Positions 25,012-39,841 of a stretch of 49,864 nt of DNA are shown here, in pieces. Origin of the DNA: an uncultured Prolixibacteraceae bacterium (GTDB lineage Bacteria > Bacteroidota > Bacteroidia > Bacteroidales > Prolixibacteraceae); the NCBI GenBank assembly GCA_913063265.1, contig CAJXZG010000034.1, positions 1-49,864 of the forward strand, in the 5' to 3' direction. Under the pieces are notes generated by a model, which had not been told where the DNA came from, did no database searches, and saw nothing but the letters and a program-made list of their open reading frames with translations. A program made the position numbers and the translations under genes. Each line of letters opens with the position of its first letter. Within the stretch, counting starts at the first letter, position 1.

Positions 25012-26125
25012 TTATTGATATAGTTTATTAATTACTGCAAGGGCATCAGAAAAACGGGTATAACTGAGTTTATAAAACGTGGTTTTCTCCATCCATTCAA
25101 AAAAGAGCATAACATTTTCCCTGTCCGGATTTACCCAGGTCTCCTTTAATAACAACCGCAGTGCTTCTTTTTTATCGGTTTCCTTAAAACTAAAATGCCC
25201 CGTAATGTTGTATTCAACAAATATCAATGCCTTAACAGGGTAGGGGGCAGCTTTTATTTCTTCCGTATTGTTTACCGGAATGTATTGTACACTTTTTCCG
25301 GAAAAAGCCTCCATCGGTTCCGACTCTTTCAGGCCCGGATAATATTCTGAAAGTGTCTGTGCAGCACCTGCTTTTACCGATATCGCAGAAGGCAAGGGAT
25401 AAACCATTCCTTCTTTGTCGCCCATAATAAAATCGTCTGATACATAATCAAAACCATGAGCTTTTAACAGAGCAACAAGGGTACTTTTACCTGAACCGCC
25501 TGCTGCTGAAAAAAGTATAGCCTTTTTATTCTGTACAATTCCTGATGCATGAAGCGACATCATCCATTCATCGTATTTCCTATTATAAATAATACTGAAA
25601 ATCTGCTGTTTTACTGCCCCGGAAAAGTATTCCATGTCTTTGATTTTAAATACATCAATAAGTTTTGACCGGTATTTGAAATACAAATATTTACTATCTG
25701 AAAACAGTTCCAGCTTGTTTTTTATGGAATCGCTATGGGTGATTTCGAGGTGGGCAAACAGCGGATGCACAGACCGTTCCAACTCAGGATTACCAAAAGC
25801 AATTGTAATTTTTGAGTTACCCAGTCTGTAGTTTCTTTTAATATTTAAGGGTGGGACAGTCACTGCCGAAGTAATTTGCTTTTTTTGTGAAAGGTTTTTG
25901 GTATCGTCTTTTTGATTTAACAAATCAATGATTTCGAGTATCTCCTTTACAGGCGTATTTACTATTACAGAATTCAATAATCTCAGCTGTATTTTTATTG
26001 GACAAGTGCATTTTAAACACATCAAAGGCAGGCTCCTCAAAAAATATAAACGACGCCGAGTTTTCAAACCAGATGGCTTTTGAATCTCCAAATTCTTTTA
26101 TGATTACAGGTATTTTTTCATTCAT
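25012..26125 (-). CDS. PqqD-like / HPr-kinase-like fusion, interrupted by a frameshift
   Basis: Two overlapping frames together make one protein of about 370 residues. The first starts at 26125 (MNEKIPVIIKEFGDSKAIWF) and encodes a PqqD-type leader-recognition fold (FIFFEEPAFDVFKMHLSNKN, AEIIEFCNSKY). It stops near 25925, while the frame carrying the continuation of that same helix (PVKEILEIIDLLNQ) runs on to 25012. The switch lies near 25950-25957 and amounts to one extra base. The second part is an HPr-kinase-like ATPase with a P-loop (AAGGSGKSTLVALL) and DYVSDDFIMG, as in kinases that phosphorylate lasso precursors. Read alone, the longer frame has an implausible Arg/Leu/Cys-rich start. Either a pseudogene, a sequencing error or, less likely, programmed +1 frameshifting. 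The small peptide at 26235-26417 lies directly upstream. Confidence 0.75.
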
Positions 26126-26234
26126 AAACTTTTGTGGAATATTAAAGTCCTGAAAATATATTGCTAATAACTATCCTGACAGCTTAATTTCAACATCTTA
26201 CGAAAATTCATAAAATTATAAGCTATACAAGACA

Positions 26235-26417
26235 CTAGCTCCTGCCGGGTTTTCTTGGCAACAATCTTTTTGTTGAAGTCTGGGCAGCCGCCGGAGTTTC
26301 TAAAAACAGAAGAGATGCCGAGGTTAATGCCGTAATCCCCACTTTTTTAATGGCTTGTTTACGCGAAATTTTTTTACAGGATTCTTTTTGGGAATGAATA
26401 CGTTTTTGGGTGTACAT
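26235..26417 (-). CDS. 60-residue exported-type peptide, candidate RiPP precursor
   Basis: A short gene 109 bases upstream of the PqqD/HPr-kinase fusion, same strand. The basic N-terminus leads to a twin-Arg-like stretch (ISRKQAIKKVG) and a hydrophobic core (ITALTSASLLFLETPAAAQ) that looks like a Tat-type export signal with an Ala-rich cleavage site near residue 45. What remains is the short basic tail TSTKRLLPRKPGRS, ending in a C-terminal Ser. Neighbouring leader-binding and kinase domains make it a plausible modified peptide, the terminal Ser being a possible phosphorylation site; this is inference. It shares its 5' leader with the T9SS protein. It could also be a truncated exported protein. 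Confidence 0.55.
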   Translation of the reverse strand: MYTQKRIHSQKESCKKISRKQAIKKVGITALTSASLLFLETPAAAQTSTKRLLPRKPGRS

Positions 26418-26856: not shown

Positions 26857-27306
26857 ATGTCAAGCTACCGTCAAATACTTTATCAAATTGTTTTCAGAAC
26901 CAAACACAGTCATAAAACCCTAAAAAAGGAATGCCGAGAAGAACTTTTCAAGTATATCCATGGTATTTTAAAAAATAAGAAATGTCATTTGTACAGAATC
27001 AATGGGATGGAGGAGCATATACATATCTTATCCGACCTTCATCCTTCTATTGCTTTAGCTGATTTTGCCAGAGACATAAAAACGGCATCTTCTATCTGGT
27101 TAAAGCAATCCGGGCTTTTTCCGGATTTTATTGGATGGGCTGGGGGATATGCAGCATTGACCTATTCAAATTGGGATAAAGATAAGCTGATTGACTATGT
27201 AAAAAATCAACAGGAGCATCATAAAACTGAAACTTTTGAGATGGAGTACAGGAGACTGCTGGAGGAGCATGGGATTGTGGTTGATGAGCGTTATTTTTTG
27301 AGATAG
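26857..27306 (+). CDS. REP-associated tyrosine transposase (IS200-like, TnpA_REP)
   Basis: A 149-residue Y1 HUH transposase. Visible motifs are the metal-binding HUH pair in GMEEHIHIL and a candidate nucleophilic Tyr in KLIDYVKNQQEHHKT. SSYRQILYQIVFRTKHSHKTL is the usual N-terminal strand in two pieces. Single-copy relatives (RAYTs) act on short palindromic repeats rather than on classical IS ends. Here hairpin repeats flank the gene on both sides (26693-26774 and 27313-27784) in inverted orientation. The gene looks intact and lies on the opposite strand to the lasso and kinase genes. It could be active or domesticated. Confidence 0.9.
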   Translation: MSSYRQILYQIVFRTKHSHKTLKKECREELFKYIHGILKNKKCHLYRINGMEEHIHILSDLHPSIALADFARDIKTASSIWLKQSGLFPDFIGWAGGYAALTYSNWDKDKLIDYVKNQQEHHKTETFEMEYRRLLEEHGIVVDERYFLR

Positions 27307-27312
27307 CAATAG

Positions 27313-27784
27313 GGTTCAACCCCTTCGGGGCTGATTCGATATTATGATTACGAGCCGTGCGTTGTACACACGGTTATTCGTATTCAACCCCTTTGGGGCT
27401 GGTAGCGCCAATAGAGTTTTGTTGCCACCGTCCCGAAAGCTTTCGGGAGCACCGGGGGTTATTCAAATTTAGTCCCTTCAGCACATTTAAGAATTCAACT
27501 CTGGTGTATGTAAGGTTCCTTCTAATTCAATAGAGCAAGTACGGATTTATGCAATCACTAGCACAGTTCAACCCCTTTGGGGCTGATGGCCTTTCAGAGT
27601 TTTCTTGCCCCCGGTTACACCGGAGGTTATTCACATTAAATCCCTTCAGGATTTTCTAGTGCACTATTCTTGTATATATATCAAACTATTTTGGACTTAT
27701 GGCCGGGATAGCGTTTTTTTGCTCCCGTCCCGAAAGCTTTCGGGAGCACCGTTGGTTATTCACATTAAATCCCTTCAGGACTTT
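27313..27784. repeat. REP array downstream of the transposase
   Basis: Three or four variant units. Each has TTCAACCCCTTYGGGGCTG (27314-27333, 27383-27401, 27567-27585), a spacer with GTTTT and TTGC, a GC hairpin (27354-27373; TCCCGAAAGCTTTCGGGA at 27431-27448 and 27728-27745; CCGGTTACACCGG at 27611-27623), and GGTTATTC...ATCCCTTCAGGA. The first CCCCTT hairpin at 27314 lies closest to the transposase. The region has no gene and lies between the transposase and the end of the ABC exporter. Confidence 0.8.
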
Positions 27785-27844
27785 GAAAGGAATAAAGCAG
27801 AAATCCTAAAGTGTACGAGTTAAATCAATGGCGATACCCATTTA

Positions 27845-29554
27845 TTATTTACTTGACTGGTCATTTAAATCAATCACCTTATCAAACCAGGGGAGTACAG
27901 AGGTACGATGGGTAACAAAAATTATGGTAATCTTGTTTTTGAGAGAGGTAAGGGTATCAAGAATAATTTTTTCATTTTCTGAATCCAGGGACGAAGTTGC
28001 TTCATCCAACAATAAAATCTGAGGATGACGAAGGAGGACCCGTGCCAAAGCGAGTCGCTGGCGCTCACCACCGGAAAAATGAAAGGGATAGTTGACGATT
28101 TCTTCATCCAGACCATTGGGAAAACGATTGACAAGATGGTTGGCATTCACCTGTTTTAGTACCGCATTAATTTCCCGATCCGAAATTTCTTTATGGCTGT
28201 CCCATACCAGGTTTTCACGTAGGGTGCCATCGATAAAAAAGGAGTCCTGGGGCAGATATCCGATTCCTGTTCTCCAGTTGGGCAGATTTTTTTTGTCCAA
28301 TAAGTTGCCATCCACCTTAATTTCTCCCGACTGAGGATTTTGTAAACCGGCAAGCAAATCTATAAAAGTAGTTTTGCCTCGACCCGATTCTCCAATTATC
28401 CCGGTAAGTTGCTTAGCAGGAATACTTTCATTAAAATTCTGAAACAATTCTTCTCCACCGGGGAAAGAGAAATTTAAGTTGGTAATACTAATCTCTTCTT
28501 TTAATTGCAGTGGCTCGGGTTTTTTATGGAAATGTGCACCGGGTTCAGGGAAATCTTTGTCCAGTTGCATGACCAGTTTTACCGATGCCAGGTTACTGAT
28601 GATCATGTTTACATCGGTATTAATGGCGGTAAATTGTGGATAAATGCGGGCAAAAAGGATGATTAAAATAAAAAAGGAGGTAAGGGGAAGCATCTCGAAA
28701 CGATACCCGATATACACCACTGCTACCAGCACCAATATTCCAACAATACGATAAATAAGTTGGGGCAGCGAATAATTTTTTTGTATCCTGTACTCCAAAT
28801 CGAGCAGGGAAGAGGAGGCCGAATTAAATTTACGGGAATAAAAATCCTCGGTGCTGTGTACTTTGGCAATCTTTACTGTATTCCAGAAATCATCGATGTA
28901 TTTGAGCAGGTGATTGTAGGCATCCACCTGTTTTTCGCCAAGGGTAAATGCTTTAGACAAAAATTTACGAAGTATGATAAAAAGTACAACTCCCGTAAAC
29001 GTAATAAAAACCGTAAATTTTACCGAAACCAACAAGGCCCAACCGAGATAAGTGGCCGTCATAATCAGAGCTGTAAGCAGGCGAAGAAAAAAGTAAAAAT
29101 AGTTGGCCAGGTTAGGCACCTCTTTACTAAGTACCTGCAGGTGGTTGGTTTTACTTTTGTTGTTGAGCAAATCCCAGTCGGCCATTATAATTTTACGAAA
29201 CAGGCGTTTGCGAATCTGATAAATAAAGGTCTGTTGATATCCGGCATCCAGCATCGCTTTGGTGTACTGTAAAAGCGCCATAAGCGATAACAAGATGACA
29301 TAGGTAATTAAAATGGTTTCGAGGTTAAGTTCTAATCCAAGCTTTTCTGCCAGTTCATTTAAAATGTTTGTTATTTGGTTGGATTCAGTATCTGCTCCCC
29401 CGGTTATCAGTTGCAAAAGGGGAATTAGTAAAATGATAGAGAATCCGGAGGCGGTTCCCAGAAAGAGGGTGAGTAAAAATATTAATACAAGCTTCCCGGG
29501 TTGAAAATTTCGGATGTAAGAGAGGGATTTTAAAGTAAAATGAAAATTCTTCAT
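27845..29554 (-). CDS. Lasso-peptide ABC exporter (fused TMD-NBD)
   Basis: A 569-residue half-transporter expected to export the mature lasso peptide, which often also gives self-immunity. The first 310 residues form the six-helix ABC exporter membrane domain (LVLIFLLTLFLGTASGFSII; TYVILLSLMALLQYTKAM). The nucleotide-binding domain has Walker A GESGRGKTT, signature FSGGERQRLALARVLL, Walker B ILLLDEATSSLD and the switch His in FVTHRTS. There is no N-terminal C39 peptidase domain, as expected where B2 removes the leader. It overlaps the stop of the B1 gene by one base, so translation is probably coupled, and it is the last gene of the operon. Confidence 0.9.
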   Translation of the reverse strand: MKNFHFTLKSLSYIRNFQPGKLVLIFLLTLFLGTASGFSIILLIPLLQLITGGADTESNQITNILNELAEKLGLELNLETILITYVILLSLMALLQYTKAMLDAGYQQTFIYQIRKRLFRKIIMADWDLLNNKSKTNHLQVLSKEVPNLANYFYFFLRLLTALIMTATYLGWALLVSVKFTVFITFTGVVLFIILRKFLSKAFTLGEKQVDAYNHLLKYIDDFWNTVKIAKVHSTEDFYSRKFNSASSSLLDLEYRIQKNYSLPQLIYRIVGILVLVAVVYIGYRFEMLPLTSFFILIILFARIYPQFTAINTDVNMIISNLASVKLVMQLDKDFPEPGAHFHKKPEPLQLKEEISITNLNFSFPGGEELFQNFNESIPAKQLTGIIGESGRGKTTFIDLLAGLQNPQSGEIKVDGNLLDKKNLPNWRTGIGYLPQDSFFIDGTLRENLVWDSHKEISDREINAVLKQVNANHLVNRFPNGLDEEIVNYPFHFSGGERQRLALARVLLRHPQILLLDEATSSLDSENEKIILDTLTSLKNKITIIFVTHRTSVLPWFDKVIDLNDQSSK

Positions 29555-29817
29555 TATTCTTCGAAAATTAGTCCCAATTTTTTCATTTCGGTAATGTGTT
29601 CCTGAACCTCTTTAATACATTGTTCTTTGTTAACCTCAAATTCTTCTAACAACACTTTACATATCTCTTCAATGGATAAAGGTTGTTCCAATAAATCCCA
29701 GATCCTGGTGGCAACCGGATTTAAAGAAAAATATTTACCCATATCAATATCCATCATTACCAACTCATCATGTAATTTGTCGGCAATTGTTTTGTTATTG
29801 CGAATGTATTTTTTCAT
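29554..29817 (-). CDS. Lasso B1 protein (PqqD-like leader-binding RRE)
   Basis: An 87-residue PqqD-fold protein. In lasso systems the separate B1 protein binds the precursor leader and delivers it to the B2 protease. Typical features are the early beta segment (DELVMMDIDMGKYFSLNPVATRIWDLL) read in two parts as VMMDIDMGKYFSLN and ATRIWDLLEQPLS, then SIEEICKVLLEEF and a closing amphipathic helix. It is sandwiched in the operon, sharing single-base overlaps with the genes on both sides. The identity as B1 rests on the neighbours, since PqqD-like domains serve many RiPP classes. Confidence 0.88.
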   Translation of the reverse strand: MKKYIRNNKTIADKLHDELVMMDIDMGKYFSLNPVATRIWDLLEQPLSIEEICKVLLEEFEVNKEQCIKEVQEHITEMKKLGLIFEE

Positions 29818-30383
29818 TAATTTTCTGATTTGTTGTTTGTACCTTTAAGAGCCATGAACTTTTTTTCTGATTTGAAATGTTTAACAAAAAGTGCTTCCAA
29901 AACATTGCATTGAGCTAATAAAATGTTCAATTCAAGTGAATCATTCTTTTTATCATTCAATTCTTTACTTTTATAACCAAGTTTTATTAATAATCCATTA
30001 AATGTAATTTTATCATAGTCCCCGGTTAGTTTTGCCCATATCTTAAATATTTTGTTCCTTGCTTGCTTTGCATTTTCCACCAATTGTAATGCTTCTTTTA
30101 TCATCATTTTATTATCCTCCACATCGAATAGTAATTGACACCGATATGAAGAACAGATCTTTGCTTTTTTTTGGTTGTAAATCGTACATTTCTTATCGAA
30201 GTATAAACATGGTAACTTAAAATATTCCTTATTTTTATCTATAAAATAATTTTTTTCTATTTTTTCAGGAAGAGTTCCACGTTCTCCCTGTTCCAGACAT
30301 CCACTGTAAAATAAAGTACCATCGCAACAGAACCCGCAATTGATACATATTATTTGTTCGCTATTTTTAGTTTTTTCGGTCAT
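29817..30383 (-). CDS. YkgJ-family cysteine-cluster protein in the lasso operon
   Basis: A protein of 188 residues from the ATG at 30383, chosen over the ATG at 30413 because it shortens the overlap with the cyclase gene (17 bases remain) and opens just before the conserved domain. The N-terminal half has CINCGFCC, then CLEQG, PCLYFDKKCTIY, ICSSYRCQ: eight or so Cys in the YkgJ/CxxCxxCC pattern thought to bind zinc or an iron-sulfur cluster. The C-terminal half is helical and unlabelled. Its place between cyclase and B1, with overlaps on both sides, suggests a role in peptide modification. No function for this family in lasso biosynthesis is known to me. Confidence 0.8.
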   Translation of the reverse strand: MTEKTKNSEQIICINCGFCCDGTLFYSGCLEQGERGTLPEKIEKNYFIDKNKEYFKLPCLYFDKKCTIYNQKKAKICSSYRCQLLFDVEDNKMMIKEALQLVENAKQARNKIFKIWAKLTGDYDKITFNGLLIKLGYKSKELNDKKNDSLELNILLAQCNVLEALFVKHFKSEKKFMALKGTNNKSEN

Positions 30384-32223
30384 TGGAAAAAGATTTATTT
30401 GGGCAACGTTCATTCATGTCGTTGTACTGAATCAAAAACATTTGTATTTCCTTGATAACATGGATAGTATTGTAGAAATCAATTAAATTATTACTATCGG
30501 TTTTTTCCAATCTGTCTATTTCTTTTTCAATTGCACTTTTATCAAACCAGGTAAGTACATCCATTTTAATAATCACATCAATTTCTTTTAATATATCCTT
30601 GGCTACATTTATTAATTCTAATTCAAAAATATTTCTATAAACAGGGTCAACACCTGATGTCCTCCATCTTATCTTTTCTGGTAGAAGTCCCTCACTGATT
30701 TCTCTAATTAGTACCCTGGGATATTTCGAATTTACCAGATATTCAGAAGGAACAGATAAAACAAATTCAATAAGCTCTTTATCCAAAAGTGGATATCTGT
30801 ATTCAACACCAGTCTTGAATCCTTTGATGTACCATTCTTCTATACGTTCTGCCAAATAATTACATTCAAGTGCATTTAAATGGATTTCTCTTCTCGATTT
30901 GTAAAAAAAGAAACTTTTTATCGTTTGTTTGTGATGATTTTTATGTGGTTTAGCAAGATATCTTGAGATTCCATCCAAATGTTTTTTGACATTTGGAGAG
31001 AAAATACTAAAATATGGATATATAATTTCGTAAACTAAAGTTTTTAAAAAATGCTTAGGTTTACTTAGCGGATTCCTTTTAAAAAATAGTTTCCATTTTC
31101 TGTTTTTTAATAGGTCTGTATCTATTCCTTTTTCGCTTTTACTAATAAATTCATCGCCTCCATAGCCACTAAATATCAGATTTATATTTCTTCTATGTGC
31201 TTCTTCCAGCACTTTATTCTCAGCGATGAATCCAGTAAAATTTATTGGATCATTTGTATATTTCCAAAAATCATCTTTTGTGAAGTCGATGAAAAAGGGT
31301 AGTATATTATTTAGTTTTGCCTGTTCTTTTACCAGTTCTCTTTCATCAAATTCAAATTTAATATCTCGATCAGTTTTAGGAGACCAGGAAAATCCTATAA
31401 ATTCAGATTGGGTTTGATAATTTTTTTTAACCAGTGCAGCAACAATTCCTGAATCAAGTCCGCCACTGAGATGTGTAGCAGCTTTAAACCTTGAATCATA
31501 TCTTAATTTGACTGATTTTTCAAGCAACTGCTGAATCTTTTTTATTACTTGTTTCTTTGTGAGTTCTTTATTTAATTTTATTGATTCCGGATACCAGTAT
31601 TTGGTTCCGTACAGATTTTCTCCATCGTATCTTATAAAATAACCAGGTAATAGTCGTTTAACATTTATATTATACGTGCTGTTGTAGTCAATATATTTTA
31701 TGTTTTTTAAGAGGGGCTCTACATTAAAAGTTTCTTCAGAATGAAAAAGATTGCACAAAGAGGTCATGTCAGAAGAAAACCATAACTCTTTGTTTTGAAT
31801 TGAATATGAGAGGGGACGAATACCTAGATGATCACGAAATATATAAATGTTTTTTTTATGAACTATGACAATTACAAAATCGCCGGTAAGATTATCTACA
31901 AAAGTACTTCCTTCTGATTTAAATGATTCGAAGAGAAAGTAGGGGAGAGATTTTTGGCCATTGAGATTATCTTGCTCAATTTTTAAATGATGTTGGTAAA
32001 TGACGCCAGATAATAAAATTACGTCACCTGTATCAGGATCACAATAAACCGCATCTTCATAATTATAGGGTAAGAATTTTGAAAGATATAAACCTCCTCT
32101 GAATCTTTCAGTTATTATGTCATAATGATAAAATTTGGATTCATCGAGAACATACCTTAAGCAACTTAGCTTGTTTTCTTTTTCTGTCTGAATCCCTTGA
32201 GAGTTAAAACATCCGTAAATCAT
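30367..32223 (-). CDS. Lasso macrolactam synthetase (asparagine synthase-like C protein)
   Basis: A 618-residue homologue of asparagine synthase B that would activate the side-chain carboxylate of the core peptide as AMP ester and close the macrolactam ring. The N-terminal class II amidotransferase-like domain starts MIYGCFN, without the N-terminal Cys2 nucleophile, so it should not use glutamine; this is typical of McjC-type cyclases. The synthetase domain has the ATP-pyrophosphatase loop SGGLDSG at residues 253-259 and FSGYGGDEFI downstream. C-terminal motifs VEYRYPLLDKELIEFVLSVP (20 residues) fit the family. The precursor ends 34 bases upstream and B2 lies beyond it. Confidence 0.92.
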   Translation of the reverse strand: MIYGCFNSQGIQTEKENKLSCLRYVLDESKFYHYDIITERFRGGLYLSKFLPYNYEDAVYCDPDTGDVILLSGVIYQHHLKIEQDNLNGQKSLPYFLFESFKSEGSTFVDNLTGDFVIVIVHKKNIYIFRDHLGIRPLSYSIQNKELWFSSDMTSLCNLFHSEETFNVEPLLKNIKYIDYNSTYNINVKRLLPGYFIRYDGENLYGTKYWYPESIKLNKELTKKQVIKKIQQLLEKSVKLRYDSRFKAATHLSGGLDSGIVAALVKKNYQTQSEFIGFSWSPKTDRDIKFEFDERELVKEQAKLNNILPFFIDFTKDDFWKYTNDPINFTGFIAENKVLEEAHRRNINLIFSGYGGDEFISKSEKGIDTDLLKNRKWKLFFKRNPLSKPKHFLKTLVYEIIYPYFSIFSPNVKKHLDGISRYLAKPHKNHHKQTIKSFFFYKSRREIHLNALECNYLAERIEEWYIKGFKTGVEYRYPLLDKELIEFVLSVPSEYLVNSKYPRVLIREISEGLLPEKIRWRTSGVDPVYRNIFELELINVAKDILKEIDVIIKMDVLTWFDKSAIEKEIDRLEKTDSNNLIDFYNTIHVIKEIQMFLIQYNDMNERCPNKSFSNDRKN

Positions 32224-32257
32224 GTTTAACCCATGTATTTATTTTTTTCAGAAAAAA

Positions 32258-32386
32258 CTAATTTTTATTTAATGCAGATTTCTTTTCTTGTCCTCCTGCG
32301 GAACCTGAGAATGTATCCTTCTTAATCTTCAATACCTGCACCTCCGGTTTTACCCAGTTTTTCTTTTTGATTTCCTTTTTTTCCAT
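32258..32386 (-). CDS. Lasso-peptide precursor (A)
   Basis: A 42-residue reading frame between B2 and the cyclase, ATG at 32386, TAG at 32258. The Lys-rich leader has NWVKPEVQVLKIKKDT: an aromatic-x-x-Pro-x-Val motif (W11, P14, V16) recognised by B1, and Thr25 at the penultimate leader position. This matches the paeninodin-type leader pattern KPxLxVL...T. The predicted core is SGSAGGQEKKSALNKN (residues 27-42). Glu34 is core position 8, so an 8-residue ring from Ser1 to Glu8 and an 8-residue tail are expected. Odd points are the Gly/Ser-rich ring, the lack of bulky plug residues in the tail and the strongly basic tail. Core Ser11 or Ser3 could be the kinase target. Confidence 0.85.
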   Translation of the reverse strand: MEKKEIKKKNWVKPEVQVLKIKKDTFSGSAGGQEKKSALNKN

Positions 32387-32471
32387 AATGTTCAAGTTTT
32401 AACTTTATACAAGGTCACTGTATATCGCGTCAATTTTCAATAATTTGAACAAAAATAGTGTTCTAAACGAC

Positions 32472-32888
32472 TTATTCAAAAAAACTTAGCTCTAAATAAT
32501 CAGAATTTTTATTCACAATCTCAAAATCACCGGTTTTTAACCAGGCATGATGAACGATTTTATTGTTGATATCTTTGAGTACTCCCAGTGAAAGCCGGGA
32601 GGGTATGTTCCTGCGGTTTAACATATAACGGCCTGCAAGGCTTTGCACAAGGCAGACGTTAAGCCAGAATGCGGTTTGATTGGCACGGGCAAGGGCAGTT
32701 TTAATCTGTGCAAGTTCTTTTGGTGTTGCCTTATTATTTTTGACAGCTTTTCCGGGAAAAAACTTTAGACAACGTTTAAATGAAAAGAGTAGGAGGGAAA
32801 TTTTTGCCAGGTAAAGAAAAAACAGCGCTTCATGGAAGATTTTTTTTTCCTTGGGTGGCAGATGCAAGTATTTGCTGAGCTTATTCAT
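32472..32888 (-). CDS. Lasso leader peptidase (B2, McjB C-terminal / transglutaminase-like)
   Basis: A 138-residue cysteine protease that removes the leader. I chose the ATG at 32888 over 32939 because B2 proteins begin just before the helical stretch LPPKEKKIFHEALFFLYLA. The catalytic Cys79 is in WLNVCLVQSLAGRYML, followed by the family motif IPSRLSLGV, His114 in VHHAWL and Asp121 in KTGDFEI: a complete Cys-His-Asp triad. It lies 85 bases upstream of the precursor gene. A gap of 440 bases filled with a MITE-like repeat separates it from the kinase gene further upstream. Confidence 0.92.
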   Translation of the reverse strand: MNKLSKYLHLPPKEKKIFHEALFFLYLAKISLLLFSFKRCLKFFPGKAVKNNKATPKELAQIKTALARANQTAFWLNVCLVQSLAGRYMLNRRNIPSRLSLGVLKDINNKIVHHAWLKTGDFEIVNKNSDYLELSFFE

Positions 32889-33048
32889 TTTTGTAAAACG
32901 ACAGTTTAAAGATATCAAAAGAGTCCATCTTTCTGACACGATTTCTACAGGGATTATTTCAAGGGCTACTTTCTAAAGTTTATACTTCTATTGAAATAAG
33001 ATGCTGAAACAAGTTGCCAATAACAGATTTAATTTTCAATATAGATAT

Positions 33049-33209
33049 ACCACCCCACCGCTGTAAACGCGGTACCCCCCTCCTTAAAAAGGATGGGAAA
33101 TTTAGACTTTCAAAACTTGTTTTGTTTTCCAAATTTAGAATTGGAATACGAATATTTCTCCTCCTCAATGAGGAGGAGTACACCCCGAGTACTCGGGGTG
33201 GGAGGTGGT
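33049..33209. repeat. MITE-like element, copy A
   Basis: A 161-base element between kinase and B2 genes, with ends ACCACCCCACCG and CGGGGTGGGAGGTGGT that are inverted to each other. Inside the right end are two perfect hairpins, CTCCTCCT-caatg-AGGAGGAG (33158-33178) and the palindrome ACCCCGAGTACTCGGGGT (33182-33199). The left end has weaker ones (CCGCTGTAAACGCGG; CCTCCTTAAAAAGGATGG). No transposase inside. Related right ends occur at 34804-34851 and 41152-41291. Confidence 0.7.
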
Positions 33210-33331
33210 TTGAATAAGCTAATGTTATTGTCTCATTTTGCCAAAATTATGGGTGGCCACTTAGTATAATATGCTTTTATGGTGAGTGCTACAACACATA
33301 TATTCTATTTTTTTAATCCTCTCCCAAAAAA

Positions 33332-34165
33332 CTAATTCTTTTCCAGGTATTCCTCAATTCTCTTTTTCATTTCCATCAAGGGGAAGTTTTTAGGTCTTAA
33401 AACTTTGGTAATCCTTACCGTTTTGCTGATTTCAATTAACTGTGTCATATAGGCTTTTTCTGTTTCTGGCATTCCTTTTAGCATCTCCCATCCACAAATT
33501 TCTCCCCTGAGCATAGTAAATTTGTCAAGGCCTTTTAATTCTGAAAATTCAGGTTCTGAACCTTCAGAAATATTTATCCATAAAACTTCTTTGAGCGGAA
33601 CTGTTTGTGCCTGCTTACCCGAAAATTCGAAAAATAATTTTTGGTTAAAAGGATTAATACCTGTGGAGGGCTGATGGATGTGTTCCATCTGCTGCAGGGC
33701 TTCTTTTTTTAAAGCTATCTGGCGAGATAGTTGGTGGAGAAAAGGTTTTTCCTGGTTAAAAGTAACTGGTGTAAGATCATCGGTAAGAAAACTATTGTTG
33801 TTTGCTGAGAATGCTGCAGTAAGCGATGATTTGCCGGCACCTGAATCTCCACAAAGCATTATTCCACTGCCATTTAATTCAAATGAACTGGCATGAAAAT
33901 TCAGGATTTTTTGTTGATGTAAGATGGTGGTGGTTCCCCAGGAGTGCAGAAGTTGTTCTATTTTGGATTTTTCTGCTCCCGGAAATAGCGCAATTTCAAT
34001 TCGATTTCCATGGGATATAAAATAGCTGGCTATATCCTGAATGGTAATCAAACATTCATGCTGGTTGACACAAAAAAAACCATCATCAAAAAGGGGATTT
34101 TTAGGTTTCTTTTGTTTTGAAACGATTTCAATTTTAACATCCTTTATCGGGAAGCGAAAGGGCAT
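33332..34165 (-). CDS. HPr-kinase-like lasso peptide kinase (K)
   Basis: A 277-residue ATP-dependent kinase homologue. The C-terminal domain has the P-loop CGDSGAGKSSL near 115-125, then FLTDDLTPV and a long alpha/beta tail. It lacks the full capture and CcpA-binding features of true HPr kinases. In paeninodin-type clusters such a kinase phosphorylates a Ser of the precursor. Here it lies on the same strand upstream of B2, so a tailoring role on the precursor is likely; the precursor has candidate Ser residues at core positions 1, 3 and 11 but no C-terminal Ser. Unlike the gene at 25012-26125 it is intact and has no PqqD domain. Confidence 0.82.
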   Translation of the reverse strand: MPFRFPIKDVKIEIVSKQKKPKNPLFDDGFFCVNQHECLITIQDIASYFISHGNRIEIALFPGAEKSKIEQLLHSWGTTTILHQQKILNFHASSFELNGSGIMLCGDSGAGKSSLTAAFSANNNSFLTDDLTPVTFNQEKPFLHQLSRQIALKKEALQQMEHIHQPSTGINPFNQKLFFEFSGKQAQTVPLKEVLWINISEGSEPEFSELKGLDKFTMLRGEICGWEMLKGMPETEKAYMTQLIEISKTVRITKVLRPKNFPLMEMKKRIEEYLEKN

Positions 34166-34851: not shown

Positions 34852-34892
34852 AATATTTAATAGCTTCAATGTCCTTTTATTGGTTTGCACCG

Positions 34893-35012
34893 GTTATTAT
34901 TCATATCAGGTCCTTTCAGGACTGAAAGAATTGATTAAGAGATACCTCACCCCAGCGGGGTGAAATGTCTGTAGCCCCGGGTAAAATGAACGAAGAGAAT
35001 GGCACCCGGGGT
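34893..35012. repeat. Mixed REP-like remnants
   Basis: CCGGTTATTATTCATATCAG and GTCCTTTCAGGAC resemble the tail of the REP units beside the transposase. Next come the perfect hairpin TCACCCC-AGC-GGGGTGA (34947-34963) and an inverted pair CCCCGGGT (34975-34982) / ACCCGGGG (35004-35011). From 35013 to 35390 I see no gene, only AT-rich sequence. Confidence 0.55.
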
Positions 35013-38842: not shown

Positions 38843-39841
38843 TTAGTAACGCCACAACCTGGATAGCCTTAATTTGGATAATTGAATAAAAATATAGTAA
38901 TTATACATATTTGGATGTTCTGAATACCATTCAATGGATTTTAAATAGCTAACTTGTTTGTCCCCATTTATAACGTCTGGTAATCCCTGAATATTAAAAA
39001 TTTTGGAAAGTAAATAATAGTATGTCATTAATTTTGTTTTTTCTGTTGTTTGCAGAATAATATCAGAAAAATTTGTTCGCTTCATAATTAAATAGAAATC
39101 GTAGAAATCGCGTAGGGAAATAATTTTAAAAAGATGCCCATGATTGTTTAACTGAGCATGTACAAAATTATGAAGGGATTTATGTTCATCGGAAGGAACA
39201 AAACAGTTGGAATTAGCTGCCGCAACTTTTTTGTTTTGAAAAACAGAGAGTGTATCCAGGTCTTTTGTGTATTCCTCATTTACAGGTAAACGATGTATTT
39301 CTACATCAACCGGATGCCCTTTTTTATATAAACGTGGATAATGTTTTAAGGTGGTAACATCATTGTACACTCTTTTATAGGTTTTATATCCCGAATCTAG
39401 CAGGATTTGGGCCGTTTTTAAATAATCTTTGTCCTGAACCAGCAAGTCGATATCTCCAATCATTCGTTCACCCATATCAGAGAATAAATTATCAAGCAGG
39501 TTGCCAACTCCTTTTAAATAAACCGTAATAATATTTTTACCGATAAGTAAGCTATTTATTTCTTCTACCTGTTTAAGAATGTCATGGTTTCTGTTTGTAT
39601 TTTGGAGATAAATGGCAATAATTTTTTTTGAATAATCTGTTGGGAAAACTTGCATTAGATTATGTTTTCTGAATATCAAATATATGGCTGGTAAAATGAG
39701 TTCGTCACTACAAAACTTTATAAAATCGTCAGGTTTAATCTTACCATTAGAAAAATTATTGATGATGGTTTCCCGAAATTCAGGATGATCATCAAGGGAG
39801 AGACATTGACCGGTAAAATATAGAAGATACTTATTAACCAT
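38843..39841 (-). CDS. Nucleotidyltransferase family protein (NTP_transf_5-like)
   Basis: A 332-residue protein of the PF14907-type nucleotidyltransferase group. An N-terminal helical region leads to the polymerase-beta-like core: LKGVGNLL, then GERMIGDIDLLVQDKDY with the metal-binding Asp pair, and a third acidic position in PVDVEIHRLPV. Substrate unknown. Family knowledge: such proteins occur in lasso clusters that also carry HPr-kinase-like genes, as well as in capsule loci. Here it sits between the PglF- and PglE-like genes, same strand, 4.7 kb from the lasso kinase, so it could serve either system. The gap to the PglE gene is 128 bases with no clear terminator. Confidence 0.78.
   Translation of the reverse strand: MVNKYLLYFTGQCLSLDDHPEFRETIINNFSNGKIKPDDFIKFCSDELILPAIYLIFRKHNLMQVFPTDYSKKIIAIYLQNTNRNHDILKQVEEINSLLIGKNIITVYLKGVGNLLDNLFSDMGERMIGDIDLLVQDKDYLKTAQILLDSGYKTYKRVYNDVTTLKHYPRLYKKGHPVDVEIHRLPVNEEYTKDLDTLSVFQNKKVAAANSNCFVPSDEHKSLHNFVHAQLNNHGHLFKIISLRDFYDFYLIMKRTNFSDIILQTTEKTKLMTYYYLLSKIFNIQGLPDVINGDKQVSYLKSIEWYSEHPNMYNYYIFIQLSKLRLSRLWRY

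What the first reader, a model, noticed from the sequence alone, without database searches (positions are those of the whole stretch)
27845..34165. Lasso-peptide biosynthetic locus in a Bacteroidota genome
On the minus strand, in order: HPr-kinase-like K, B2 (Cys79, His114, Asp121), 42-residue precursor, asparagine-synthase-like cyclase without Cys2, YkgJ-type protein, PqqD-like B1 and an ABC exporter. Each core lasso function is present, and the last four genes overlap or nearly overlap. The set resembles the paeninodin type (with kinase) known from Firmicutes and Proteobacteria; the gene order with B2 upstream of the precursor and a cysteine-cluster gene inside the operon is not one I know.
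Basis: partly seen in the sequence, partly recalled or inferred. Interest (0 to 1): 0.85.

Follow-up and report, generated by a model that had tools for sequence, protein, structure and literature searches.

The report
Lasso-peptide operon with cysteine-cluster protein
The stretch is a real gene cluster for making a small knotted ("lasso") peptide in a Bacteroidota-type bacterium, and it belongs to a little-noticed subtype that carries an extra cysteine-rich, probably metal-binding protein whose job is unknown and which may decorate the peptide.

Summary
On the minus strand lie kinase K, leader protease B2, a 42-residue precursor, an asparagine-synthase-like cyclase without Cys2, a YkgJ-type (PF03692) protein, PqqD-like B1 and an ABC exporter. 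B2 passes the NCBI lasso cut-off. In a tree the cyclase sits with lasso cyclases, apart from the genome's own asparagine synthetase. The order K-B2-A-C-YkgJ-B1, with an alignable precursor, recurs in five other genomes: a conserved subtype. Predicted product: 16-residue lasso SGSAGGQEKKSALNKN, Ser1-Glu8 ring. It lacks the paeninodin kinase target: 19 of 22 precursors from YkgJ-free loci end in Ser, this one and two relatives do not; all three have Ser/Thr at core position 3, the site Bradymonas BsfK phosphorylates (PMC10368454). The new part is YkgJ: beside lasso genes in 12 genomes, in one of them fused to a B2 domain. Its job is unknown. My lead, a FliB-like Fe-S lysine N-methylase, fits clade 1 (Lys in 8 of 8 cores; controls 2 of 22) but its pre-stated prediction failed in clade 2 (3 of 8, by eye). 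New variant of a known kind.

The parts
33332..34165 (-). K: HPr-kinase-like peptide kinase (277 aa), His91 / P-loop GAGKSS / Asp129-Asp130
   Evidence: PF07475 23.6 bits (cut-off 33.3) and TIGR04352 37.9 bits (cut-off 200), both below cut-off; H-K-D-D pattern; same place in five relatives
32472..32939 (-). B2: leader protease (155 aa from GTG, 138 aa from ATG at 32888); Cys79, His114, probable third residue Glu123 (138-aa numbering)
   Evidence: NF033537 56.7 bits over cut-off 33; PF13471 53 bits; alignment
32258..32386 (-). A: 42-aa lasso precursor; leader with WVKPEV and Thr(-2), predicted core SGSAGGQEKKSALNKN with Ser1-Glu8 ring
   Evidence: aligns with the precursors of L037 and L038 between B2 and C; NF033524 15.2 bits, below cut-off 27; core boundary inferred from Thr(-2)
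30367..32223 (-). C: macrolactam-forming cyclase (618 aa), no Cys2
   Evidence: PF00733 99.5 bits; NF033535 162.9, below cut-off 525; lasso clade in tree
29817..30413 (-). YkgJ-type cysteine-cluster protein (198 aa), Cys 23, 26, 29, 30, 69, 76, 87, 92
   Evidence: PF03692 in 19 of 19 aligned members at E up to 1; the eight Cys invariant in 19 of 19
29554..29817 (-). B1: PqqD-like leader-binding (RRE) protein (87 aa)
   Evidence: PF05402 70.4 bits; NF033536 69.9 bits, cut-off 80
27845..29554 (-). ABC exporter, permease-ATPase (569 aa)
   Evidence: PF00005 and PF00664; similar proteins near lasso genes in L038, L041, L060, L070, L073, L078, L093

Best explanation
The locus is a functional-looking lasso-peptide operon of a YkgJ-bearing Bacteroidota subtype. 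B1 binds the leader through its WxxP region; K phosphorylates the precursor, most likely on core Ser3; B2 cuts after Thr(-2)-Phe(-1); C activates Glu8 and joins it to the Ser1 amine, closing an 8-residue ring round the tail; the ABC protein exports the product. YkgJ is a further, probably Fe-S- or metal-bearing factor that acts at the precursor-B2-C stage, most likely as a tailoring enzyme (best lead: lysine N-methylation of the Lys-rich core). Shown here: the genes, their order, its conservation, the precursor family and the YkgJ linkage. Inferred: cleavage site, ring, threading, phosphorylation site, export, and everything about what YkgJ does.
For: B2 over its curated cut-off, PqqD-like B1, C without Cys2. 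Cyclase in a clade of seven YkgJ-locus cyclases (100/100) next to lasso cyclases L041/L043 (100/98), with four MCGI-type AsnB rows elsewhere. K-B2-A-C-YkgJ-B1 in six of nine clade-1 loci: window, L037, L038, L103, L120, L121; of the other three, L091 is cut off by contig ends (A-C-YkgJ seen) and G486's fusion loci L092 and L093 have other orders. Precursors of window, L037, L038 read W-x-KP-x-VQ...DTF|S with Glu at core 8. These three lack a C-terminal Ser but have Ser/Thr3; L103, L120, L121 end in Ser and have Lys/Asp3; BsfK phosphorylates Ser3, accepts Thr3, and its substrate ends in Asp (PMC10368454 passages). YkgJ is fused to a B2-like domain in two loci of G486, the catalytic Cys replaced in both. 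Lys in core: clade 1 8 of 8 (L093 gave no precursor), controls 2 of 22, one of these by hand.
Against: C, B1 and precursor fall below the curated NCBIfam cut-offs. No product, threading or modification can be seen from sequence. The pre-stated predictions (note) failed in clade 2: the order differs and 3 of 8 precursor-like frames have Lys in the core, counted by eye with uncertain boundaries. Clade-1 loci share ancestry, so 8 of 8 are not eight independent events. No SAM-binding part was recognised in YkgJ and it has no convincing PDB relative by sequence. The clade-1-like YkgJ of L122 has no K, B1, B2 or C detected within about 9 kb. In the window and L038 no nucleotidyltransferase lies inside the operon, unlike L037.
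Confidence: 0.75

Rival explanations
1. YkgJ is an assembly factor, not a tailoring enzyme: a Zn- or Fe-S-binding adaptor that helps the B2-C complex hold or fold the precursor, so the product carries no extra mass.
For: YkgJ (or the fusion) is directly beside C in 8 of 9 clade-1 and 3 of 5 clade-2 loci; it is fused to a B2 domain that looks catalytically dead in L092 (Cys to Thr, His to Tyr) and is truncated with Cys to Ser in L093; I saw no modifiable residue common to the clade-2 cores.
Against: Most lasso loci of the order seem to manage without it: 2 of 46 fetched B2 loci other than the window have such a gene in the held stretch, some stretches being short.
Confidence: 0.35
2. K phosphorylates another site or another protein rather than core Ser3.
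For: K is homologous to the K beside 20 of the 22 control precursors, and 19 of those 22 end in Ser, the known PadeK target.
Against: The window core ends in Asn, L037 and L038 in Val; the L037 tail after Glu8 has no Ser, Thr or Tyr. Ser1 is not excluded.
Confidence: 0.3
3. The locus is a decaying or non-lasso asparagine-synthase-like cluster.
For: C and B1 are below the curated NCBIfam cut-offs; an IS200-like transposase and repeats flank the locus.
Against: All frames open, active-site residues kept in B2 and K, cyclase in a lasso clade, precursor conserved.
Confidence: 0.04

Closest known systems
Paeninodin and pseudomycoidin (PadeK / PsmK-PsmN lasso clusters; review PMC9266682, passages seen)
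   Same: B1, B2 and C proteins and an HPr-kinase-like K with His-Lys-Asp-Asp; L037, L038 and L093 also have a PF14907 nucleotidyltransferase nearby, comparable to PsmN by annotation
   Different: No C-terminal Ser in the window precursor; YkgJ gene inside the operon; B2 upstream of the precursor and B1 downstream of C
Bradymonas sediminis bsf cluster (BsfA/BsfK; PMC10368454, abstract and passages seen)
   Same: Kinase-bearing cluster whose precursor does not end in Ser and has Ser3 (Thr3 in a relative) in an 8-residue ring
   Different: Thr(-2) here instead of Ile(-2); Trp in place of Tyr in the YxxP leader motif; a predicted nucleotidyltransferase and no YkgJ among the bsf genes named in the passage
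FliB flagellin lysine N-methylase (PMC8598068, abstract and passages seen)
   Same: Eight conserved Cys with an N-terminal cysteine motif the authors liken to PF03692; shown there to bind [4Fe-4S] and methylate Lys with SAM
   Different: FliB motif is CX4CX3CC, here CX2CX2CC; no FliB sequence was compared; substrate and activity here unknown; no FliB-named family among the five NCBIfam families listed for the 19 members
YkgJ / PF03692 family proteins of unknown function
   Same: Cysteine pattern; 19 of 19 members match PF03692 at E up to 1
   Different: 30 of 47 B2-bearing genomes have a PF03692 match at E up to 0.01, but only G271's lies in the lasso locus; that search missed the lasso-linked YkgJ of G000 and G072, so the model is insensitive to this subtype

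Membership tests
Lasso-peptide biosynthetic cluster | Transglutaminase-like leader protease (B2) with Cys/His | tested here: met
   NF033537 56.7 bits, cut-off 33; Cys79, His114
Lasso-peptide biosynthetic cluster | PqqD-like leader-binding B1 | tested here: met
   PF05402 70.4 bits, cut-off 23.4; the lasso-specific NF033536 is the best NCBIfam match at 69.9 but its cut-off of 80 is not passed
Lasso-peptide biosynthetic cluster | Asn-synthase-like cyclase without Cys2, in the lasso clade | tested here: met
   NF033535 162.9 bits is below cut-off 525; deep forks of the tree are weak
Lasso-peptide biosynthetic cluster | Precursor with Y/WxxP leader, Thr(-2) and Asp/Glu at core 7-9 | tested here: met
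   W-V-K-P, Thr(-2), Glu8
Lasso-peptide biosynthetic cluster | Threaded product | not testable with these tools
   needs expression and mass spectrometry or NMR
Paeninodin-type phosphorylated lasso | Kinase with His-Lys-Asp-Asp | tested here: met
Paeninodin-type phosphorylated lasso | C-terminal Ser in the precursor | tested here: not met
   ends ...ALNKN; 19 of 22 control precursors end in Ser
Paeninodin-type phosphorylated lasso | NF033524 PadeA family match | tested here: not met
   15.2 bits, cut-off 27
BsfA-type ring-phosphorylated lasso | Ser/Thr at core position 3 and no C-terminal Ser | tested here: met
   window Ser3, L037 Thr3, L038 Thr3
BsfA-type ring-phosphorylated lasso | Ile/Val(-2) in the leader | tested here: not met
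   Thr(-2)
FliB-like Fe-S lysine N-methylase (YkgJ) | Eight conserved cysteines incl. N-terminal Cys motif | tested here: met
   8 Cys invariant in 19 of 19, spacing CX2CX2CC rather than CX4CX3CC
FliB-like Fe-S lysine N-methylase (YkgJ) | Lysine in the substrate | tested here: inconclusive
   clade 1 8 of 8 cores, controls 2 of 22; clade 2 3 of 8 by eye
FliB-like Fe-S lysine N-methylase (YkgJ) | [4Fe-4S] cluster and SAM-dependent methyl transfer | not testable with these tools
   needs anaerobic protein and assay

The most novel reading that the evidence does not exclude
The YkgJ-type protein is a new class of lasso (RiPP) tailoring enzyme, a small Fe-S protein without a recognised radical-SAM or Rossmann methyltransferase domain, that modifies the core, for clade 1 probably by lysine N-methylation, and that was recruited to lasso operons at least once and fused to a B2 domain.
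Probability: 0.3. Interest if true: 0.8.

Novelty: new variant of a known kind. Interest (0 to 1): 0.52.

Why it matters
Lasso peptides are valued for their stability, and each new tailoring enzyme is a tool. Here a protein family with little assigned function (PF03692) turns up repeatedly inside one pathway with a 42-residue substrate, so its chemistry can be tested by mass spectrometry. The core also makes a clean test of ring (Ser3) against C-terminal phosphorylation, because the C-terminal Ser is missing.

Tried and rejected
Rejected: true asparagine synthetase (tree; the genome has its own AsnB, L132). Rejected as universal: lysine in every core beside YkgJ, and one gene order for all YkgJ lasso loci (predictions noted, failed in clade 2). 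Rejected: Ser1 as a YkgJ-linked feature, because the YkgJ-free sister loci L041 and L043 also start their cores with Ser. Not supported: PF03692 proteins as general lasso neighbours. Led nowhere: the genome-contig scan with C gave one distant locus; the PDB sequence search with the YkgJ alignment gave six rows at E 0.26 or worse; plasmids tblastn with YkgJ gave none; the phylum-wide YkgJ search gave only G000 and G723 among 345 genomes. The YkgJ tree does not settle whether lasso-linked YkgJ arose once (clade 1 in one piece in 19% of 200 bootstrap trees). Literature: search 50 asked for at least two of 'lasso peptide', PF03692, CxxCxxCC, YkgJ and the domain's name and found one paper, PMC7064751 on OleA thiolases, not opened; one search listed the 18 papers that hold 'YkgJ', and no title was on lasso peptides or RiPPs (titles and abstract starts seen); searches were listed only in part. 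Subscription papers are mostly not held, so this is no proof of absence.

Rows dropped: L039 (YkgJ without B2) from the lasso counts; the partial cyclase L074 from the tree; the 28-residue L080 hit from the precursors. Controls: 22 of the 44 YkgJ-free B2 loci fetched gave a recognisable precursor; the other 22 are not in the Lys or Ser counts. The script gave no core for L070; I read it by hand and counted it as having Lys. The L091 core start is uncertain by one residue. The eight clade-2 precursor-like frames have weak scores (those listed have E 0.02 to 1; two of the four in L123 are only motif matches), were read by eye, and two of those counted as lacking Lys have one near the presumed cut. 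The Fisher value (7.7e-6) ignores shared ancestry and was computed after the pattern was seen.
Full report
What is there. The window is contig C34 of a 5.49-Mb, 190-contig genome, 94% complete. On its minus strand between 34165 and 27845 lie, in order, an HPr-kinase-like protein (K), a transglutaminase-like leader protease (B2), a 42-residue precursor (A), an asparagine-synthase-like cyclase (C), a YkgJ-type cysteine-cluster protein, a PqqD-like protein (B1) and an ABC exporter. Family scans give B2 as lasso_biosyn_B2 over its cut-off; for B1, C and A the best NCBIfam match is a lasso model, but below the curated cut-off. One B2 was found in this genome. A secreted protein with a PF18962 sorting domain nearby fits Bacteroidota; that this domain is typical of the phylum is recalled.

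Is it a lasso locus? In a maximum-likelihood tree of 40 cyclases and asparagine-synthetase-like proteins, the window cyclase falls in a clade of seven cyclases from YkgJ-bearing loci (100/100), with the lasso-locus cyclases L041 and L043 next to it (100/98), while the AsnB of the same genome lies elsewhere with three other MCGI-type rows (deep branches are weak and some rows are long). C lacks Cys2. Relatives do carry the precursor.

A conserved subtype. B2 occurs in 47 of 393 genomes sampled in the order. Of the 46 B2 loci fetched besides the window, B1 was detected in 37, and in 33 of these it lies within 250 bp of B2 on the same strand. A different order, K-B2-A-C-YkgJ-B1, is found in the window, G271 (L037), G072 (L038), G723 (L103), G1191 (L120) and G1209 (L121); L037 has a PF14907 nucleotidyltransferase between B2 and A, L038 one on the other strand beyond K, and the exporter follows B1 in the window and L038. 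L091 shows A-C-YkgJ up to contig ends; the two fusion loci of G486 (L092, L093) have other orders. The subtype is sporadic: lasso-linked YkgJ in 4 of the 140 genomes held of the window's family, 1 of 5 of G271's family, 7 of 150 sampled of G723's family, and 2 of 345 sampled across the phylum, the window and G723. That suggests horizontal movement or repeated loss (inference).

The precursor and product. The precursors of the window, L037 and L038 share W-x-KP-x-VQ, Asp-Thr-Phe before the cut and Ser1...Glu8 in the core. L103, L120 and L121 have Thr-Tyr, Ser/Thr1 and Glu9. Predicted window product: SGSAGGQEKKSALNKN closed Ser1-Glu8, [M+H]+ 1557.798.

What K does. Of 22 recognisable control precursors 19 end in Ser, the residue that PadeK-type kinases phosphorylate (PMC9266682, passages). 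The window, L037 and L038 precursors end in Asn, Val and Val, yet their K proteins keep His-Lys-Asp-Asp. L037 has no Ser, Thr or Tyr after Glu8. Core positions 1 and 3 are the only hydroxyl positions of the core shared by all three: Ser1, and Ser, Thr and Thr at 3. BsfK of Bradymonas phosphorylates Ser3, also Thr3 in a variant, of a precursor ending in Asp (PMC10368454, passages). So Ser3 is the best guess. L103, L120 and L121, which do end in Ser, have Lys or Asp at position 3: a complementary pattern, but of small number; L091 and L092 also end in Ser, and the core start of L091 is uncertain.

What YkgJ does. All 19 aligned members share eight invariant cysteines and match PF03692 at E up to 1. 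Members beside lasso genes were found in 12 genomes: G000, G072, G271, G438, G486, G723, G1191 and G1209 (clade 1, with the fusions of G486) and G1268, G1287, G1170 and G1208 (clade 2). Nine further genomes (G347, G459, G593, G708, G696, G519, G768, G1228, G1206) have members with no K, B1, B2 or C detected in the fetched stretch; two weak hits were not fetched. In G486 YkgJ is fused to a B2-like domain whose catalytic Cys is replaced (L092 has also lost the His; L093 is truncated). This ties YkgJ to precursor processing. FliB, a flagellin lysine methylase, has eight conserved Cys and a [4Fe-4S] site at a motif its authors compare with PF03692 (PMC8598068, passages). Lys is in the core of 8 of 8 clade-1 precursors (L093 gave none) and 2 of 22 controls (one by hand). 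I wrote the prediction down before opening the loci: the two new clade-1 loci met it, but they are close kin of L103; clade 2 did not, with 3 of 8 precursor-like frames by eye, and its gene order differs. The methylase reading is therefore a lead for clade 1 only, and an adaptor role is about as likely.

Placement. It works like a lasso cluster, and it is one by the features tested here, apart from curated score cut-offs that B1, C and A miss. It is not paeninodin-type by the C-terminal Ser test. The YkgJ subtype was not met in print in searches, in a library that lacks most subscription papers and with several lists shown only in part. Interest is moderate: the lasso locus is ordinary for the order, the YkgJ component is not explained.

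Noticed in passing
window 25012-26417 and 38843-39841; L159, L160: A second HPr-kinase-like gene beside a 60-residue peptide with SRKQAIKKVGITALTSASLL, and, further off, a PF14907 nucleotidyltransferase 49% identical to the one in L159. L159 (same genus) has a similar secreted protein, a similar peptide, such a kinase and a nucleotidyltransferase in a row; L160 (same genome) has kinase and peptide. No B2 or cyclase was detected in L159 or L160: possibly another kinase-modified peptide system.
   Followed up: partly
window about 25925-26125 against 25012-26091: The part that resembles the start of L159's kinase lies in a different frame from the rest of this second kinase, so the gene looks frame-broken or the assembly has an error; by eye that part looks PqqD-like, but it has no Pfam match.
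   Followed up: no
window 26857-27306 and repeats at 27315-27787, 34888-34925: IS200-like (Y1) transposase with families of short direct and inverted repeats on both sides of the lasso locus, like a REP-RAYT arrangement (name recalled).
   Followed up: partly
L092 9694-10629 and L093 5717-6541: YkgJ fused to a B2-like domain that has lost the catalytic Cys; in L092 no separate B2 or B1 was detected in the held stretch, while a B1-B2 pair sits on another contig of the same genome (L093).
   Followed up: partly
L092 13018-14064: 348-residue protein close to the precursor with another cysteine-rich pattern; no Pfam match at E up to 0.01.
   Followed up: no
L103 12925-13728: PhyH-type dioxygenase directly upstream of K, a possible hydroxylase for that lasso peptide.
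   Followed up: no
L123 5859-6556: Four tandem precursor-like frames in one clade-2 locus, all with W-V/I-SP leaders.
   Followed up: no
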